Source of the DNA: Solirubrobacterales bacterium
GTDB lineage: Bacteria > Actinomycetota > Thermoleophilia > Solirubrobacterales > Solirubrobacteraceae
Assembly: GCA_003133565.1 (NCBI GenBank)
Contig: PKYB01000070.1
Location: forward strand, 1 to 45,267
Direction: 5' to 3'
DNA length: 45,267 bases
The translations under genes were made by a program, and so were the position numbers. Below, one piece after another: positions 13,357 through 29,236 of the stretch (positions are counted from its first letter, which is position 1; each line of letters starts with the position of its first letter). Below the pieces are notes generated by a model. It did no database searches, was not told the DNA's origin, and was given only the letters and a program-made list of their open reading frames with translations.

Positions 13357-13481
13357 TTAATTGCTCCTGGCGGCACTTTGAGCCGCGGACGATTCGGAGA
13401 CTGCAAACCCGAACCGCTCCATTTGCGGGACCCAAGTGAGCTGCCTCGCGGTCAACGAGTGCCGACCGCCCTTTCAGGCTA
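13357..13481 (-). promoter_or_regulatory. Probable long 5' UTR and -10 box of the DEAD-box helicase gene
   Basis: Read on the minus strand, TAGCCT (13481-13476) could be a -10 box, giving a leader of about 110 bases before the helicase ATG. Just before the ribosome site there is a small GGC/GCC hairpin. Long leaders are common for cold-shock DEAD-box genes; the role here is inference. Confidence 0.3.
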
Positions 13482-13579
13482 TCAGCTATCACGGCCCAGT
13501 CTGGCTGCCTGCCCTGCGAATCGACAGGGCCCGTGCGCCAGCCGGCGCGCTCGGTCGGGGCGGTAGTACCCTCGCGGTT

Positions 13580-14239
13580 GTGCCCGGGCAGCCGCGAGAA
13601 GCCCTCGAGGCCGCGCTGCCCGCACTCGAGCGCGCGGCGAGCGAGAAGCCTGCCACCAAGATGGTGGAACACGACTTTCAGGTGGCGCTCGAGGAGAGCA
13701 CCGGCGCCTCCTCGGTCAGCATTGAGCTGAAGCACTGGCCCGAGGCCGGTCCGCTCGATCTCGTCCTCGATGGCGATATCGGACTCGAGCTCCAGTGGTG
13801 CCAGCGTGGCGACACGCTCGCGGGCTGCGCCTGGGACATCGCGAAGCTCGCCTGCGCCGTCGGCGAGCGCAAGATAGCCCAGGGCTGGATCGTTGCTGCC
13901 GCCCCCACCTGGCATTGGCGGGGCCACCGCCCGGGCGTCGATCTGTTCAAGCCCCGCACCTACGTCGGCGACGAGCTCGTGGTCGAGTATGAGAGCGCGT
14001 GGCGCCTGTGGTGCAACAACGTGCCGACACGCCCGACCCACTTGCCGTTCTCCTTCGCCGTCACCGACGTCGACGCGATCAGCGCGCGGCTCAGCCGCGT
14101 GCCTTTCGACATCCGCTTCGCCCGCGTCGAGGTCCGCAAGCACACCTGGCAGGTCCACGTCTGCCCGCACCGCTGGCGCGACCGCTACTGCCTGCCGCGG
14201 CCCTGGGATCCCGAGGGTTTCGGCGGCCTCGCACCGTAG
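13580..14239 (+). CDS. Hypothetical protein, possible PD-(D/E)XK-like core
   Basis: A 219-residue cytoplasmic protein with no signal peptide or membrane span. I start at the GTG at 13580 because TACCCT lies seven bases upstream, the same leaderless pattern as recQ; the frame is open further upstream but reads unlike protein. The middle has LDLVLDGDIGLELQWC (about 58-73), followed by CAWDIAKLA. An acidic strand, then E-x-(K/Q), then a helix with D..K is the outline of the PD-(D/E)XK nuclease fold, with Gln in the usual Lys place. The C-terminal half is Trp/Arg/Cys-rich (WRLWCNN, VHVCPHRWRDRYC). I recognise no named family, and nuclease activity is speculative. Confidence 0.7.
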   Translation: MPGQPREALEAALPALERAASEKPATKMVEHDFQVALEESTGASSVSIELKHWPEAGPLDLVLDGDIGLELQWCQRGDTLAGCAWDIAKLACAVGERKIAQGWIVAAAPTWHWRGHRPGVDLFKPRTYVGDELVVEYESAWRLWCNNVPTRPTHLPFSFAVTDVDAISARLSRVPFDIRFARVEVRKHTWQVHVCPHRWRDRYCLPRPWDPEGFGGLAP

Positions 14240-14314: not shown

Positions 14315-16792
14315 ATGTTCACGATGGCCGTCATGATCAAAGAGCCGGCGAGGCTCGCCGTCGGGCCACTACTGCGCGTCGAGGCGCTCAGCGTTCGCTA
14401 CGACTCGTTCACCGCGCTCGACGCTATCGACTTCGACATCCGCCCCGGCGAGACCGTCGCGCTCGCCGGCGAGAACGGCGCCGGGAAGTCGACGCTTGTG
14501 CGCTGCATCGGCGGCGACATGATCCCAACCAGTGGCCGGATCTTCGTCGACGGTGAGCGGATCGGCTCAACGCCGGCCGCGGCTGCCCGCCGCGGCGTCA
14601 CCGTCGTCTGGCAGAACCTCGCGCTCTGTGACAACCTCGACGTCGCGTCGAACTTACTGCTCGGCAGCGAGAACGCCGCGCTGCTCCGCTCTGCGTCGCG
14701 CTTTCACGAGGCCGCCAGGCAGCTCCTCGCGGACCTCGGGATCGGCTTGACGGACACGACGCGCTACGTCGGCTCGCTTTCCGGCGGTGAGCGCCAGCTC
14801 GTCGCCGTCGCCCGTGCGATGGCCAGCCGTCCAAAGCTGCTCGTGCTCGACGAGCCGACGACGTCACTCGGTGTGAGCGAAACGGCGCAGGTCGATCAGC
14901 TCGCGGCCAAGGTACGCGAGCGCGGCACGACCGTGCTGCTGGTCTCGCACGACATCGGCCAGATATTCCGGCTCGCCGACCGCATAATCGTGCTGCGACA
15001 CGGACGGATCGTGGCCGATCTTGATCCGGCCACTTCGCACCCAGAGGACGTCGTCGCTCTCATCTCGGGCCAGCCGATCGACTCCTCGGCGAGACAGCAG
15101 CTGAGCCGCCTCCACGGCCTCGCCGATCGCCTTGCCTCGGCGGACCCGTCCTCGAGCTTGCCGCTGATCCTGTCGGCGCTCGGCGGTGCGCTCGGGGCGC
15201 CACGGCTGTGCGTTCATCTTGTCGAGGGCGGCCGGCTGCGCCTCGCGGGCGCGCTCGGCCTCCCGGCTGCGCTCACCGACGCGTGGTCGGACTTACCGTT
15301 CGACCACGCCGGCGGACCTGCCGGCGTCGCCGCCGAATCTGGGGATACGGTCATCGATTTCGACATCCGCTCGAGTGCCGCCTGGGCCCCCTGGCAGCCG
15401 CTGGCGGTGGAGGCGCGCGTGCGCAGCTCCTGGTCGGTTCCTGTGATCGGCACCGACCGCCTGCTCGGCGTGATCACGGTCTTTCGCGACGTTCTCGGCC
15501 ACCCGCCGGGCGATGAGCTGCGGCTCGTGGACCTCTACGCCGGCTACGTCGCCAGTGCGGTCGAGCGCGAACGGCTGCTCGGCGAGGTCACCACACGCAA
15601 CCGCGTGCTCGAGACGATTCGCGACGTGCTTGAGACGCTCGCGGGCCCGGTACCGCTGGCCCACGGCCTGACCTTGGTGTTGCAAGCGCTCCGGCAGGGC
15701 CTCCAAGCCGAGCGCGTAGCGCTGCTCACAAACGACGTCGTTGACGAGAGCGCCGAGCGCTGGCTCACCATCGACTCCTCCGGCGAGCAGGTGGGTGTCT
15801 CCGGCGGGCTGCTGGAAGCGGCCGCGCTACTACGCAGCGGAGGCGGGCGCGACGGTCGGGCGACGAGCATCGTCCCGGCGGACGGCGACGCGTGCATGGC
15901 CGTGAGCTTCTCGGCTCCCGGAGGCGGCGGCATTCTGCTCGCCCAATGGGGCGCCCCGGACACCCCGCCCGACGCCGTCGCGCTGATGGAGGACACGGCC
16001 AACTCGCTGCGTCTCGCTCGTGAGCGCCAGGAATCCGAGCGCGCACGCGAGGAGGCGAGCGCGCTGCGCCGCTCGCGCGAGCTCCAGCGCGGCTTTCTGT
16101 CGCGCCTCAGCCACGAGCTGCGGACCCCACTGACAGCGATCGGCGGTTACGCGTCGAGCCTGATGGCCCCCGACGTGACCTGGGACGGGCCGTCGGAGAC
16201 GCGCTTCCTGACGCGGATTGGCGCCGAGTCGGCTCGCCTCAGTCGCCTCGTCGTCGACCTGCTCGATTTCTCGGCGATCGAGTCCTCGACGATGCGCATG
16301 CTGCCGGACTGGTGCGAACTGCTGCCCATCCTTGATGCCGCGATCGCGTGCTTGCCGCCGGCTCAAGCGGCCGTCATCGAGGTCGACTTCCAACACGACC
16401 TGCCGGTCATCTGGGCCGACCACGACCGTCTCGAGCAGGTCTTCCTGAACCTGCTCGAGAATGCGCTGCGTCACAATCCCGACGGAACCCGGGTATGGGT
16501 CAAGGCGACCGGAGATGAGGAGCACGGTGTGACGATCAGCGTGACCGACGACGGTGGCGGCCTGCCTGACGAGGTCGCACTCGCCCTCTTCGAGCCGCGT
16601 AGCGGCGGCGTCGGCGCCGCGGCTGGAGCTGGGCTCGGACTCTCGATCGCCAAGGGCATAGTCGATGCTCACCTCGGCGAGATCGACCTCGAGCGACTCA
16701 AGCACGGCACGCGCTTCTCCGTGAGGCTGCCGATCGGCGGCCCCGACTCCTCCCACCGGTACACGGAGGATCATGACCTCTCCGACTTCTGA
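14315..16792 (+). CDS. Fusion: sugar-type ABC ATPase - GAF - GAF - histidine kinase
   Basis: An 825-residue soluble protein that joins two normally separate machines. Residues about 18-240 form a complete ABC ATPase: GENGAGKST (52-60, Lys58), the Q-loop region VVWQNLALCDNLD, signature LSGGERQ (155-161), LLVLDEP with Asp179-Glu180, and His212. Residues about 255-420 read as a GAF domain and 425-575 as a weaker second one. Then comes a charged helix and HisKA with His600 in LSHELRTPLTAIGGY, and HATPase_c with Asn716, DDGGG (745-749) and GAGLGL (771-776). All catalytic residues are intact. There are no membrane helices, so its membrane contact would be through an ABC permease. The next gene, a response regulator, overlaps by 20 bases; a binding protein, a second ATPase and a permease follow. 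I know of no characterised protein with this layout. Confidence 0.95.
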   Translation: MFTMAVMIKEPARLAVGPLLRVEALSVRYDSFTALDAIDFDIRPGETVALAGENGAGKSTLVRCIGGDMIPTSGRIFVDGERIGSTPAAAARRGVTVVWQNLALCDNLDVASNLLLGSENAALLRSASRFHEAARQLLADLGIGLTDTTRYVGSLSGGERQLVAVARAMASRPKLLVLDEPTTSLGVSETAQVDQLAAKVRERGTTVLLVSHDIGQIFRLADRIIVLRHGRIVADLDPATSHPEDVVALISGQPIDSSARQQLSRLHGLADRLASADPSSSLPLILSALGGALGAPRLCVHLVEGGRLRLAGALGLPAALTDAWSDLPFDHAGGPAGVAAESGDTVIDFDIRSSAAWAPWQPLAVEARVRSSWSVPVIGTDRLLGVITVFRDVLGHPPGDELRLVDLYAGYVASAVERERLLGEVTTRNRVLETIRDVLETLAGPVPLAHGLTLVLQALRQGLQAERVALLTNDVVDESAERWLTIDSSGEQVGVSGGLLEAAALLRSGGGRDGRATSIVPADGDACMAVSFSAPGGGGILLAQWGAPDTPPDAVALMEDTANSLRLARERQESERAREEASALRRSRELQRGFLSRLSHELRTPLTAIGGYASSLMAPDVTWDGPSETRFLTRIGAESARLSRLVVDLLDFSAIESSTMRMLPDWCELLPILDAAIACLPPAQAAVIEVDFQHDLPVIWADHDRLEQVFLNLLENALRHNPDGTRVWVKATGDEEHGVTISVTDDGGGLPDEVALALFEPRSGGVGAAAGAGLGLSIAKGIVDAHLGEIDLERLKHGTRFSVRLPIGGPDSSHRYTEDHDLSDF

Positions 16793-17489
16793 GGCGCCCC
16801 CGGCCACGAAGATCCTCGTGGTCGAGGACGATCCGAATATCGTCGACTTGATCCGTTCGAACCTCGCCGTGCGGGGCTTCGAAACGCTCGTTTCGACCGA
16901 CGGCGGCCGCGTCTTGCAAGTGCTCGAGACCGAGCGGCCGGACCTGATCCTGCTCGACCTGATGCTGCCCTCGATCGACGGGTTCGAGCTCTGCAAGCAG
17001 GTCCGCGAGCGCTCGAGCGTCGGTGTCATCGTCGTCTCGGCGCGCGGCGGCGACCACGATAAGGTCGCGGCCCTCAATCTTGGTGCCGACGACTACCTGA
17101 CGAAGCCGTTCAGCATCGACGAGCTGCTCGCGCGGATTGCGGCGACGCTGCGACGGACGCGTCCCGCACCGGTGGAGATGCAGAGCACCAGGATCGCGCT
17201 CACCGACGACCTCGAGATGGACCTCGCCAACCGACAGGTGACGCGCGACGGCACGGGGCTTCACCTGACGCCGACCGAGTTCGCGCTGCTGCGCGAACTC
17301 GTCGTGAACCGCGGCAAGCTGCTGACCCACGCGCAGCTCCTGCGGCGCGTCTGGGGTCCGGGCTACGAGACCGAGACCGAATACGTGCGCGTTTACGTGC
17401 GCCGCCTGCGGGCAAAGCTCGAGCCCGAGGGCAGCCCTCCGTTGATCATTACCCAGCCCCGCGTCGGTTACCGGCTCGCACCGGAGTGA
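16773..17489 (+). CDS. OmpR/PhoB-type response regulator
   Basis: A 238-residue regulator and the evident partner of the fused kinase, whose gene it overlaps by 20 bases. The receiver has the acidic pair in VVEDDPN (18-19), phospho-acceptor Asp62 in DLILLDLMLPSIDG and Lys111 in LTKPFS. The C-terminal winged helix shows LTPTEFALLRELVVNRGKLLTHAQLLRRVWG and YVRVYVRRLRAKL, then the usual PRVGYRL end. It resembles KdpE/PhoB. Its most likely targets are the repeats between its own stop and the binding-protein gene (17486-17555), which would let the kinase fusion control synthesis of the transporter. Confidence 0.95.
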   Translation: MTSPTSEAPPATKILVVEDDPNIVDLIRSNLAVRGFETLVSTDGGRVLQVLETERPDLILLDLMLPSIDGFELCKQVRERSSVGVIVVSARGGDHDKVAALNLGADDYLTKPFSIDELLARIAATLRRTRPAPVEMQSTRIALTDDLEMDLANRQVTRDGTGLHLTPTEFALLRELVVNRGKLLTHAQLLRRVWGPGYETETEYVRVYVRRLRAKLEPEGSPPLIITQPRVGYRLAPE

Positions 17490-17555
17490 ACGAGACGTAA
17501 ACAGCGTTCACGACTTATTCCAGAATCGCGTGGAACATTAATGGCGCCGTTCACG
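17486..17555 (+). promoter_or_regulatory. Repeat cluster, candidate response-regulator operator
   Basis: A perfect inverted repeat GTGAACG (17486-17492) - N12 - CGTTCAC (17505-17511) is followed by a second direct CGTTCACG at 17548-17555. Between them lies another inverted repeat, TTCCA - N8 - TGGAA (17518-17535). Dense half-sites ahead of a transporter operon and behind an OmpR-type regulator gene suggest binding of that regulator. The assignment is inference. Confidence 0.5.
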
Positions 17556-17656: not shown

Positions 17657-18907
17657 ATGTCTCTGCTAAAGAGCAGACTCGCGTTCGTCGGCATCGCGTC
17701 GGTGATTCTCACCGGCGGGCTGTTCGCGACCGAGAGCAGCTATGCCAAGGCCAAGGCCAAGAAGAAGGCCCCGGCCATTACGTATAAGAACCTGAGCTCC
17801 AAGGACTTCAACACCACGGAGTCAGCGATGAAGTACTTGAAGCCGCTGACGGCGAAGGGCAAGGGCAAGGTCGCCTTCATCCTGCCGGACACGACGTCGT
17901 CAGAGCGCTGGACCGAGTTCGACGCGCCGCTCCTGAAGAAGGCGCTTACGGCCGCTGGCCTCAAGTCAAGCCAGATCATCATCCAGAACGCGCAGGGCAG
18001 CGACGCGACGTTCATCACCGACGACCAGGCGGACATCACAGCCGGCGCGAAGGTGATTGCGACCACCCCTGAGGATTCGGCCACCGGTGCCGAGGCTGAG
18101 AAGCTGAACACCGCGGCTGGCGTCAAGACGATCGACTACGACCGTCTCACGCTCGGTGGAGCTACCGCCGACAAGTACTACGTCAGCTTCAACAACGTTA
18201 CCGTTGGGAAGCTGATCGGAAATGGTCTGGTCGCTTGCGTCAAGGCGTGGGGCATTACGAGCCCGAAGGTCATCGTCGCTCACGGAGCGACGACCGACAA
18301 CAACGCGACGCTTTTCGCCGAGGGCTACTTCGACATCCTCACGCCGCTGTTCAGTAGTGGTGCTTGGACGGATGAAGAGGGTGCTGCACCTGCCACGACG
18401 GCAGGAACATGGGATCCGCCCACCGCCGAGACCGAGTTTGAGCAGGCGTTTACGGCTCACCCGACGGCCAACGCGGCTCTGATGCCAAACGACGAGACCG
18501 CCGCGCCTGTCATCACCTACCTGCAGCAGCAGGGAGTCAAGCCGCAAACCTTCCCGGTCACCGGGCAAGACGCGACGCTTGTCGGGCTGCAGAACATCAT
18601 CAGCGGCTACCAGTGCGGAACGGTTTATAAGCCGATCTTCCTGGAGGCCGAAAGCGCTTCGGCGCTCGCGTTGTACCTGCGGGCAGGCCTGAAGCCGCCG
18701 AGCACGCTGATCAATGGAACGACGGAGGACACCGTGTCCAACTATGCGGTGCCGTCGATCCTCGAGACGCCGGAATGGGTCACAGCGAAGACGATCGAGT
18801 CGACCGTTGTCAAGGACGGCTTCGTTCCGCCATCGCAGATCTGCTCGGGCTCGCCGCCGTCAGGCCCGTCGTACGCGGCGGACTGCACGACGTACAAGAT
18901 CCACTAG
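17657..18907 (+). CDS. XylF-like sugar ABC transporter substrate-binding protein
   Basis: A 416-residue exported periplasmic-binding-protein type I. The N-terminus (MSLLKSRLAFVGIASVILTGG) is a Sec signal peptide without a lipobox Cys, followed by a Lys/Ala-rich linker (about 30-38). The mature part has FILPDTTSSERWTEFD, YDRLTLGG and YYVSFNNVTVGKL, close to the pattern of xylose-binding XylF, where these segments line the sugar site; the exact sugar is not proven. The C-terminal end has two Cys (CSGSPPSGPSYAADC). A good AGAGAGGA ribosome site precedes the ATG. It leads an ATPase and permease, and its leader carries the repeats and hairpin described at 17486-17627. Confidence 0.92.
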   Translation: MSLLKSRLAFVGIASVILTGGLFATESSYAKAKAKKKAPAITYKNLSSKDFNTTESAMKYLKPLTAKGKGKVAFILPDTTSSERWTEFDAPLLKKALTAAGLKSSQIIIQNAQGSDATFITDDQADITAGAKVIATTPEDSATGAEAEKLNTAAGVKTIDYDRLTLGGATADKYYVSFNNVTVGKLIGNGLVACVKAWGITSPKVIVAHGATTDNNATLFAEGYFDILTPLFSSGAWTDEEGAAPATTAGTWDPPTAETEFEQAFTAHPTANAALMPNDETAAPVITYLQQQGVKPQTFPVTGQDATLVGLQNIISGYQCGTVYKPIFLEAESASALALYLRAGLKPPSTLINGTTEDTVSNYAVPSILETPEWVTAKTIESTVVKDGFVPPSQICSGSPPSGPSYAADCTTYKIH

Positions 18908-18939: not shown

Positions 18940-19833
<894 letters not shown>

Positions 19834-19834
19834 G

Positions 19835-21166
19835 ATGGCCGCGACGAACGAACCGACCATCGGCGAGGTCAAGGCGCCGCCCGAGATCGAGCAGGAGACC
19901 AGAGCCGACGAGGCGCCGGTCGACCCCGAGCTGCTGGCGCTGCCGCCGGACGCGAGCTTCAACGAGTACATAACGGCGTGGCTCAAGCGCGTCCGACGGG
20001 GTGAGAGCGGAGTACTACCGGTCGTCGGCGGACTGATCGTGATCGTGATCATCTTCCAGATCGAGCGGTCGCGCTTCCTCTCTGATCTGAACCTAGTCAA
20101 CCTGCTCCAGCAGTCCGCCGAGTTCATCGTGCTCGGCATGGCCGAAATCTTCGTACTACTACTCGGCGAGATCGACCTCTCGCTCGGCTACTCCGGCGCC
20201 GTCGGAGCAGCGGTGATGGCGATTCTCGCCTACCCACCGATCAACCTCAGCTGGGAGCTCGCGATCATCGCCGGGCTCGCGACGTCCGCCGCGATCGGCT
20301 TCGCTCAGGGGCAGCTCATTTCCCGGATGCGGCTTCCTCCATTCGTGGTCACGCTCGGTGGGCTGCTGTTCTGGGAGGGGTTCTTGATCTGGGTGATCAA
20401 CAACCAGAGTCCATCCAACGGCGGCTCGATCCGGATCAACAGCGCCACGATCTACAACATCGTCAACGGCAATCTGAGTCTCGCCGCCGGCTGGATCCTG
20501 CTCGCCGTCGGCCTTGTGCTCTTTGCCGTCGCGAGCGTGACGCGGGACCGCCGGCGGCGCGCGGGCGGCTTGGTCGCGCCGCCGCTCAGCCTGACATTGG
20601 CCAAGGTCGTGGCCGTCTCGATAGCCGGCGTCGTGCTCGTGTGGATCTGCAACGCCAACCGCGCGGCCTTTGTCGGCGCCTCTGTAAAGGGAGTCCCGTG
20701 GGTTGTGCCGATCGTGATCGCGTTGGTGGTGGCGTGGACGTTTCTCCTGGCTCGCACGCGCTTTGGCCGCTACGTTTATGCGATCGGCGGCAACCGTGAG
20801 GCGGCTCGGCGCGCCGGCATCAACGTGCACCGCGTTCGCGTGTTCGCCTACACGCTCGCTGGCGTAACCGCCGCCGCCGCGATCATCATCCTCGACTCGC
20901 GGACCGGTGGTGTGACGACCGATATCGACGGCGGACAGACAGTGCTCTACGGTGTCGCGGCCGCGGTGATCGGCGGAACGAGCCTCCTCGGTGGTCGCGG
21001 CAAGATGATTCACGCCCTGCTCGGCGGCCTCGTGATCGCGACGATCTACAACGGCATGGGCCTACTCAGCCTCTCGACGGACTTCCAATACATGATCACC
21101 GCGCTCGTGCTGCTCGCCGCCGTGATCGTCGACGCAGTGTCGCGGCGCGGCCAAGCCGTAACGTGA
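19835..21166 (+). CDS. XylH-like sugar ABC transporter permease
   Basis: A 443-residue inner-membrane permease of the ribose/xylose family with about ten or more hydrophobic spans. It has a long cytoplasmic N-terminal tail (about 60 acidic residues), the family segment GEIDLSLGYSGAVGAAVMA, the cytoplasmic loop GRYVYAIGGNREAARRAGINVHRVRVFAYTLAG (the coupling-helix region that contacts the ATPases), and VIGGTSLLGGRG near the end. It functions as a homodimer in this family. The gene follows the stand-alone ATPase directly; both it and the kinase-fused ATPase are candidates to dock on it. Confidence 0.94.
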   Translation: MAATNEPTIGEVKAPPEIEQETRADEAPVDPELLALPPDASFNEYITAWLKRVRRGESGVLPVVGGLIVIVIIFQIERSRFLSDLNLVNLLQQSAEFIVLGMAEIFVLLLGEIDLSLGYSGAVGAAVMAILAYPPINLSWELAIIAGLATSAAIGFAQGQLISRMRLPPFVVTLGGLLFWEGFLIWVINNQSPSNGGSIRINSATIYNIVNGNLSLAAGWILLAVGLVLFAVASVTRDRRRRAGGLVAPPLSLTLAKVVAVSIAGVVLVWICNANRAAFVGASVKGVPWVVPIVIALVVAWTFLLARTRFGRYVYAIGGNREAARRAGINVHRVRVFAYTLAGVTAAAAIIILDSRTGGVTTDIDGGQTVLYGVAAAVIGGTSLLGGRGKMIHALLGGLVIATIYNGMGLLSLSTDFQYMITALVLLAAVIVDAVSRRGQAVT

Positions 21167-28937: not shown

Positions 28938-29236
28938 CTAGCGAGCGTTCACCGTGGTCCTCAGTCGGATTTGTGCCGCTATGTGCCGCTTCCGGGCCTC
29001 GCAAGAGGCTTCCAAGCTGTTCATTAGCGGGTGTTGGTGGTTGCCGACGTCCGTGTAGATGCCGAGCGTCATGCCCGGAGTCTTGTGGCCGATCTGGGCC
29101 ATCGTGAAGGCGGCGTCGGCTCCGTTCTCGGCCATCAACGAGCCGTAGGTGCGGCGGAGCGAGTGGAACGTCACATCGGGGGGATGGTTGCACGCCCGGC
29201 TGCTTCGAGGCTGGCCACAGGGCGCTCTGCGGTCAT
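28938..29236 (-). pseudogene. Tyrosine recombinase (integrase), C-terminal remnant
   Basis: The frame ending at 28938 encodes VTFHSLRRTYGSLMAENG, then FTMAQIGHKTPGMTLGIYTDV. These carry the HxxR box, the later His (GHK) and the nucleophile Tyr (IYTD) of phage-type integrases. The N-terminal arm-binding, core-binding and first catalytic Arg regions are absent. Upstream of GTG 29174 the matching sequence (VASLEAAGRATIPP) continues in another frame, which would join if the C6 run at 29178-29183 had one more C, so a frameshift is likely. It is transcribed towards tRNA-Val. Confidence 0.75.

What the first reader, a model, noticed from the sequence alone, without database searches (positions are those of the whole stretch)
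14315..16792. ABC ATPase fused to a full histidine kinase through GAF domains
One reading frame holds every motif of a sugar-type ABC ATPase (Walker A Lys58, LSGGERQ, Asp179-Glu180, His212) and every motif of a sensor kinase (His600, Asn716, DDGGG, GAGLGL). There are no membrane spans, so it would meet the membrane through the permease. ABC importers normally signal through separate kinases. A fused ATPase would let the transport cycle or ATP occupancy set kinase activity directly. I know of no characterised example.
Basis: partly seen in the sequence, partly recalled or inferred. Interest (0 to 1): 0.85.

Follow-up and report, generated by a model that had tools for sequence, protein, structure and literature searches.

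The report
Sugar-transporter ATPase fused to sensor kinase
A family of soil actinobacteria carries one protein that joins the ATP-burning motor of a sugar importer to a gene-switching sensor kinase, sitting in an operon with that importer, so the cell probably reads the importer's own working state to decide how many importers to make.

Summary
The fusion is real. One 825-codon frame (14315-16792) holds a complete sugar-type ABC ATPase domain (NBD), GAF region(s) and a complete histidine kinase (Pfam). It is no assembly error: about 50 full-length homologues occur across Actinomycetota, including two complete isolate genomes of Conexibacter. The family is sparse: 4 of 396 evenly drawn genomes. 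All NBDs sampled group together. The fusion is followed by an OmpR-type regulator in 46 of 47 loci. 35 loci hold the whole set: fusion, regulator, sugar-binding protein, separate ATPase, permease.

GAF domains are dispensable: one Conexibacter protein is NBD joined directly to kinase. Catalytic motifs decay repeatedly in the fused NBD but not in the neighbouring ATPase, while its ATP-binding residues stay invariant. Two operons have no separate ATPase. 11-bp direct repeats, typical of OmpR-type regulators, lie before the transporter genes in 24 of 41 operons.

Best reading: the fused NBD docks on the operon's permease as a sensing ATPase, reports transporter state to the kinase, and the regulator controls transporter genes. 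Circuit and conservation are shown by sequence; docking, ligand and sign are inferred. I found no published description. New variant of transporter-coupled two-component signalling.

The parts
14315..16792 (+). Fused protein, 825 aa: ABC-type NBD, GAF region, histidine kinase
   Evidence: Open frame; Pfam; AF2 model mean pLDDT 85; homologues
14369..15064 (+). NBD, residues 19-250, FrcA/CUT2-like; Walker A, Q-loop, signature, Walker B, H-loop intact
   Evidence: NBD tree
15065..15568 (+). Family-specific helical linker plus GAF1, residues 251-418
   Evidence: Pfam GAF_2; alignment A2
15644..15973 (+). Second GAF-like domain (residues about 444-553), no Pfam hit, flanked by long helices 399-443 and 554-616
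   Evidence: AF2 secondary structure; no Pfam hit
16085..16285 (+). HisKA dimerisation/phosphoacceptor domain, His600
   Evidence: Pfam; H600 invariant in 59 of 59
16418..16735 (+). HATPase_c catalytic domain (N716, DDGGG, GAGLGL)
   Evidence: Pfam; N716 59 of 59
16773..17489 (+). OmpR/PhoB-type response regulator, overlapping the fusion gene by 20 nt
   Evidence: Pfam Response_reg plus Trans_reg_C; follows the fusion in 46 of 47 loci
17486..17502 (-). 11-bp-spaced direct repeat GTTTAC-N5-GTTCAC, probable regulator site
   Evidence: same motif in 24 of 41 operons against 0.04 in shuffles
17506..17522 (+). Second, weaker repeat GTTCAC-N5-ATTCCA
   Evidence: conserved within the genus
17657..18907 (+). 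Secreted sugar-binding protein, XylF/ChvE-like
   Evidence: Pfam Peripla_BP_4; NCBIfam xylF, ChvE; nearest solved chain is the D-xylose-binding protein 3m9w
18940..19833 (+). Stand-alone single-NBD ATPase (297 aa)
   Evidence: Pfam; motifs intact in all cognate copies
19835..21166 (+). CUT2-type sugar permease, GguB/RbsC-like
   Evidence: Pfam BPD_transp_2; NCBIfam GguB; conserved cytoplasmic loop AIGGNxEAARRAGI

Best explanation
The protein is the sensor of a transporter-coupled two-component system. Its NBD belongs to the same FrcA/CUT2-like kind as the stand-alone ATPase of the operon. It docks on the cytoplasmic side of the operon's permease, in place of or together with that ATPase. Because histidine kinases work as dimers, one kinase dimer brings two NBDs and can in principle occupy both docking sites of a permease dimer. 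Opening and closing of the NBD pair, driven by ATP and by the sugar-loaded binding protein on the outside, is passed through helices (and GAF domains where present) to the phosphoacceptor helix. The kinase phosphorylates the adjacent regulator, which binds 11-bp repeats before the binding-protein, ATPase and permease genes and sets importer synthesis. Shown by sequence: the fusion, the operon, the repeats, dispensable GAFs, relaxed catalysis. Inferred: docking, direction of the response, the sugar (xylose/galactose-like), regulator binding.
For: 46 of 47 fusions with downstream DNA are followed by the regulator, and 35 loci hold all five genes. The same set occurs in unbiased hits found with a GAF-region profile. 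NBD, HisKA and HATPase_c are found in 50, 50 and 49 of 50 members, but GAF_2 in 43. Conexibacter DBS9H8 has NBD joined to kinase with no GAF, and its model puts the phosphoacceptor helix (233-277) a few residues after the NBD. K58, D179 and E180 are invariant in 59 copies. Signature or H-loop residues are lost in 11 of 51 fused NBDs and 0 of 34 cognate ATPases (p = 0.003). Fused and stand-alone NBDs of one operon are most alike at the Q-loop segment (92% against 43% overall). Two operons keep fusion, regulator, binding protein and permease but have no stand-alone ATPase gene. Regulator-type repeats have period 11 in 24 of 41 operons, shuffled mean 0.04, coding control 0. Precedent: ABC transporter conformation drives the separate kinase BceS (PMC10314905).
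Against: No direct evidence of NBD-permease contact. The Q-loop similarity is inflated because one search pattern was that motif; in unbiased hits it varies (L130, L132, L136, L153). Fisher's test ignores shared ancestry. In Streptomyces spongiae the fusion sits beside a different, tandem-NBD transporter whose Q-loop motif differs. One locus (L067) has no regulator next to it. The repeats could belong to another OmpR-type regulator.
Confidence: 0.55

Rival explanations
1. The kinase is a soluble sensor of cell energy state or of a cytoplasmic sugar metabolite. The NBD binds ATP (or the GAFs bind a metabolite) without touching the permease, and the operon position reflects only what the regulator controls.
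For: ATP-binding residues are invariant while hydrolysis motifs decay; no membrane span; GAF domains present in most members.
Against: The NBD is specifically of the sugar-importer kind and groups beside the sugar ATPases. Members without GAFs keep the operon. A generic energy sensor would not need to stay beside one importer type.
Confidence: 0.22
2. The fused NBD pairs with the stand-alone ATPase as a heterodimer on the permease, so each transporter carries one kinase-bearing and one ordinary NBD.
For: Both NBD types in one operon; one-sided decay of catalytic motifs resembles asymmetric ABC pairs (own knowledge).
Against: Histidine kinases dimerise, so each kinase dimer would have to bridge two transporters or leave an NBD free; two operons have no stand-alone ATPase gene.
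Confidence: 0.12
3. The NBD is a relic of a past gene fusion with no function, and GAF or kinase parts do the sensing.
For: Motif decay in 11 of 51 copies.
Against: ABC_tran present in 50 of 50 members, K58/D179/E180 invariant in 59; it is the only input domain left in the shortest member.
Confidence: 0.06
4. Assembly or frameshift artefact joining two genes.
For: None found.
Against: Same fusion in about 50 independent assemblies, two of them complete isolate chromosomes, and uniform codon statistics.
Confidence: 0.01

Closest known systems
Bce-type modules (BceAB-BceRS, Bacillus subtilis); PMC10314905, PMC6978683
   Same: An ABC transporter's state controls a histidine kinase whose regulator controls the transporter genes.
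   Different: There the kinase is a separate membrane protein with two TM helices that contacts the permease. Here the kinase is cytoplasmic and covalently joined to an ATPase domain, and the transporter is a sugar importer.
Pst-PhoU-PhoR phosphate signalling (PMC6978683)
   Same: Importer ATPase (PstB) takes part in signalling to a kinase and OmpR-type regulator.
   Different: PstB and PhoR are separate and bridged by PhoU; here ATPase-type domain and kinase are one chain.
Transporter-fused kinases: SLC5/STAC kinases CbrA, CrbS (PMC9100948) and KsAmt5 (PMC8534201)
   Same: Transporter part and kinase in one polypeptide; KsAmt5 is a transporter domain turned receptor.
   Different: They fuse the membrane channel or symporter domain. 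Here only the cytoplasmic ATPase component is fused.
Binding-protein-triggered kinases, XylFII-LytS (PMC6321045)
   Same: Sugar sensing by a two-component system with an XylF-like binding protein.
   Different: They use an extracytoplasmic kinase domain that touches the binding protein; this kinase has none.
FrcA-like single-NBD sugar ATPases (for example Rhizobium loci L172, L173)
   Same: Close NBD relatives with nearly the same Q-loop segment, QDLALCENLD.
   Different: No kinase attached; operon without fusion.

Membership tests
Orthodox histidine kinase (HisKA plus HATPase_c) | Phosphoacceptor His in H-box, N-, G1-, G2-boxes | tested here: met
   H600 and N716 in 59 of 59
Orthodox histidine kinase (HisKA plus HATPase_c) | Cognate response regulator | tested here: met
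   OmpR-type regulator directly downstream, 46 of 47 loci
Orthodox histidine kinase (HisKA plus HATPase_c) | Autophosphorylation and phosphotransfer | not testable with these tools
   Needs biochemistry
ABC importer NBD, CUT2/FrcA-like | Walker A, Q-loop, signature, Walker B, H-loop | tested here: met
   All intact in the window protein; degenerate in some relatives
ABC importer NBD, CUT2/FrcA-like | Phylogenetic place beside FrcA-like single NBDs | tested here: inconclusive
   Fused NBDs form their own group next to a supported branch (98) holding cognate and other sugar ATPases; quick tree with some long branches
ABC importer NBD, CUT2/FrcA-like | Binds the permease and powers transport | not testable with these tools
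   Inferred only from operon and two operons without another ATPase gene
Bce-type flux-sensing module | Separate intramembrane-sensing kinase with two TM helices | tested here: not met
   No TM segment; NBD fused
Bce-type flux-sensing module | Kinase activity set by transporter cycling | not testable with these tools
   Works-like hypothesis only
Transporter-domain-fused kinases (SLC5/STAC, Amt) | Transmembrane transporter domain in the same chain | tested here: not met
   Only an NBD is fused; permease is a separate gene
Binding-protein-triggered kinases (XylFII-LytS) | Extracytoplasmic ligand-binding domain in the kinase | tested here: not met
   Cytoplasmic architecture throughout

The most novel reading that the evidence does not exclude
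An ABC importer turned, wholly or part-time, into a receptor kinase. The permease plus sugar-binding protein acts as the receptor and the kinase-bearing NBD dimer replaces the transport ATPase. Where the stand-alone ATPase gene is missing (G312 and G450 operons), and in G450 the fused NBD has also lost its Q-loop Gln, canonical signature and H-loop His, the complex would be a pure receptor that no longer transports.
Probability: 0.3. Interest if true: 0.88.

Novelty: new variant of a known kind. Interest (0 to 1): 0.68.

Why it matters
How ABC transporter activity is read by kinases is an open question, studied mainly in Bce and Pst systems, where the parts are separate and the coupling is hard to isolate. 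Here coupling is covalent: an ATPase domain with known ATP-driven motions is tied to the kinase, in the shortest member by a few residues. That makes it directly testable whether NBD opening and closing drives autophosphorylation. It also gives a naturally modular sugar-sensor architecture and, in two operons, a possible case of importer-to-receptor evolution.

Tried and rejected
Artefact: rejected. A palindromic operator (GTAAAC-N-GTTTAC) seen in the genus did not hold across the family; re-analysis showed direct repeats of period 11 (the first period count had a pattern error and is replaced). Conservation of the Q-loop motif as proof of docking: downgraded, because the genome scan selected on that motif and unbiased hits vary. 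Sugar identity from neighbours: galactokinase and a sugar MFS porter upstream in Conexibacter, G6PD and 6-phosphogluconolactonase in some flanks, no dominant pathway. Missing ATPase in G312: a related ATPase exists elsewhere in the genome, inside its own binding-protein/permease set, so supply in trans is possible; G450 is only 64% complete. Papers: no description found in open-access full text; subscription papers are not covered. A search in another phylum could not be centred, so absence outside Actinomycetota is untested except by the pattern-limited genome scan.

Full report
OBSERVATION. The frame 14315-16792 encodes 825 residues without a stop. Pfam places ABC_tran at 35-183, a GAF domain at 279-417, HisKA at 591-657 and HATPase_c at 702-807. 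A model built on 50 homologues (mean pLDDT 85, pTM 0.48, so domain placement is unsure) shows the NBD, a helical linker, GAF1, a long helix 399-443, a second alpha/beta domain without Pfam hit, and a helix 554-616 running into the phosphoacceptor domain. Foldseek matches the NBD part to ABC ATPases, and its top whole-chain match is a full-length bacteriophytochrome kinase. No transmembrane segment is indicated.

NOT AN ARTEFACT. Three other species of the genus have the same frame at 78-82% identity, and Conexibacter sp. S30A1 (G027, L070), a complete chromosome of another genus, has a 53% identical shorter version. One scan of 84,980 species genomes gave about 50 full-length fusions, all in records labelled as Actinomycetota groups except one record labelled Melainabacteria (L041), a short MAG contig whose protein is 56% identical and which I regard as possibly misbinned. 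The 50 include Streptomyces spongiae and two complete Conexibacter chromosomes. In 396 Actinomycetota genomes drawn evenly, four carry it (G000, G312, G218, G139). Further cases are in the classes of G312 (4 of 66) and G139 (7 of 296 by profile, six read through in the neighbourhood analysis). So the family is real, patchy and old enough to have diverged to 36% identity.

OPERON. Downstream of the fusion lie an OmpR/PhoB-type regulator (overlapping by 20 nt), an XylF/ChvE-like binding protein, a stand-alone single-NBD ATPase and a GguB-like permease. The regulator follows in 46 of 47 loci with downstream DNA, and 35 loci contain all five genes, three of them with the transporter genes on the opposite strand and two with changed order. 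The exception without a regulator is L067. In Streptomyces spongiae (L050) the next ATPase is a 521-residue tandem-NBD type.

WHAT IS CONSERVED AND WHAT IS NOT. GAF domains are optional: L069, L070 and L074 lack the second GAF and part of the first, L067 lacks the first, and the 487-residue Conexibacter DBS9H8 protein (L073) has none. Its model gives an NBD ending near residue 229 and the His-bearing helix starting at 233. NBD and kinase are present in all members examined. In 59 fused NBDs Walker A Lys and Walker B Asp-Glu are invariant, but H212 is Arg in five and the signature departs from SGG in a dozen or so. In the first set, 11 of 51 fused NBDs and none of 34 cognate stand-alone ATPases show such a loss (p = 0.003, ignoring ancestry). 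This favours nucleotide binding over hydrolysis as the conserved job.

RELATION OF THE TWO NBDs. In a quick tree the fused NBDs group together beside a supported branch that holds the stand-alone ATPases and other sugar ATPases; Rhizobium FrcA-like proteins fall with the stand-alone ones. The Q-loop segment, which in ABC importers contacts the permease (established knowledge), is the most similar segment between fused and stand-alone NBD of the same operon (92% against 43% overall). This number is biased upward because one of the two search patterns was that motif. In hits found without it, the segment is kept in some (L131, L137) and changed in others (L130, L132, L136, L153). I therefore count it as weak support for docking.

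OPERONS WITHOUT A SEPARATE ATPASE. In G312 (L130) and G450 (L136) the operon is fusion, regulator, binding protein, permease, with no ATPase gene between or next to them. The permeases keep the cytoplasmic loop (read directly: AIGSDARVAERAGI and ATGSNPDVAARAGI). In G450 the fused NBD has lost the Q-loop Gln, has LGRGQ for LSGGQ and Arg for the H-loop His. Either another ATPase serves in trans (G312 has a related one in a separate sugar operon next to a ROK-type repressor) or these complexes signal without transport. G450 is 64% complete, so absence there is weaker evidence.

CONTROL CIRCUIT. The gap between regulator and binding-protein genes holds GTTYAC-like boxes. Direct repeats with period 11, the hallmark of OmpR/PhoB-type regulators (established knowledge), occur in 24 of 41 operons, against a mean of 0.04 in shuffles and none in a coding control; other periods are at or near background except 12 (5 of 41). 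In the window they lie at 17486-17502 (-) and 17506-17522 (+). The two operons without a separate ATPase have short gaps without boxes. This supports, without proving, control of the importer genes by the kinase's own regulator.

MECHANISM. I propose that the fused NBD docks on the permease as a sensing ATPase and that its open/closed state sets kinase activity. A precedent for conformational coupling of NBDs to a kinase is the BceAB-BceS complex, where ATP analogue binding to BceA bends the kinase stalk and the kinase in turn throttles the ATPase (PMC10314905). Fusions of whole transporter domains to kinases are known (SLC5/STAC, PMC9100948; KsAmt5, PMC8534201), but those fuse the membrane part. 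I found no description of a fusion of the ATPase part in the open-access library, which does not include most subscription journals.

VERDICT. Real, conserved, apparently undescribed; mechanism plausible and testable, with docking and sign of response unproven. New variant of transporter-coupled two-component signalling.

Noticed in passing
17486-17522: Tandem 11-bp-spaced GTTYAC boxes between regulator and binding-protein genes, shared by 24 of 41 homologous operons.
   Followed up: partly
L130:4702-10276, L136:4129-10409: Two operons with fusion, regulator, binding protein and permease but no stand-alone ATPase; in L136 the fused NBD is degenerate in Q-loop, signature and H-loop.
   Followed up: partly
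L073:6953-8416: Shortest fusion, 487 aa, NBD directly joined to HisKA with no GAF, in complete Conexibacter sp. DBS9H8.
   Followed up: yes
L050:243-6213: Streptomyces spongiae: fusion and regulator followed by a tandem-NBD CUT2 transporter of another subfamily, a possible rewiring.
   Followed up: no
L067:3441-5675: Fusion lacking GAF1 and with no regulator gene next to it.
   Followed up: no
L070:4125-6977: Sugar MFS porter and galactokinase-like GHMP kinase directly upstream of the Conexibacter fusion operon; a second sugar-binding protein downstream.
   Followed up: partly
13436-14239: 267-codon frame upstream of the fusion with coding-like composition and no Pfam hit.
   Followed up: no
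L017:9645-9717: tRNA-Lys(ctt) gene directly upstream of the fusion gene in G002; the corresponding stretch of the window holds the unannotated 267-codon frame instead.
   Followed up: no
L171:5308-10097: G312 carries a second importer of the same subfamily beside a ROK-type repressor gene, without a fusion kinase.
   Followed up: partly
28938-29174: Short frame resembling the C-terminus of a tyrosine integrase, probably a remnant.
   Followed up: no
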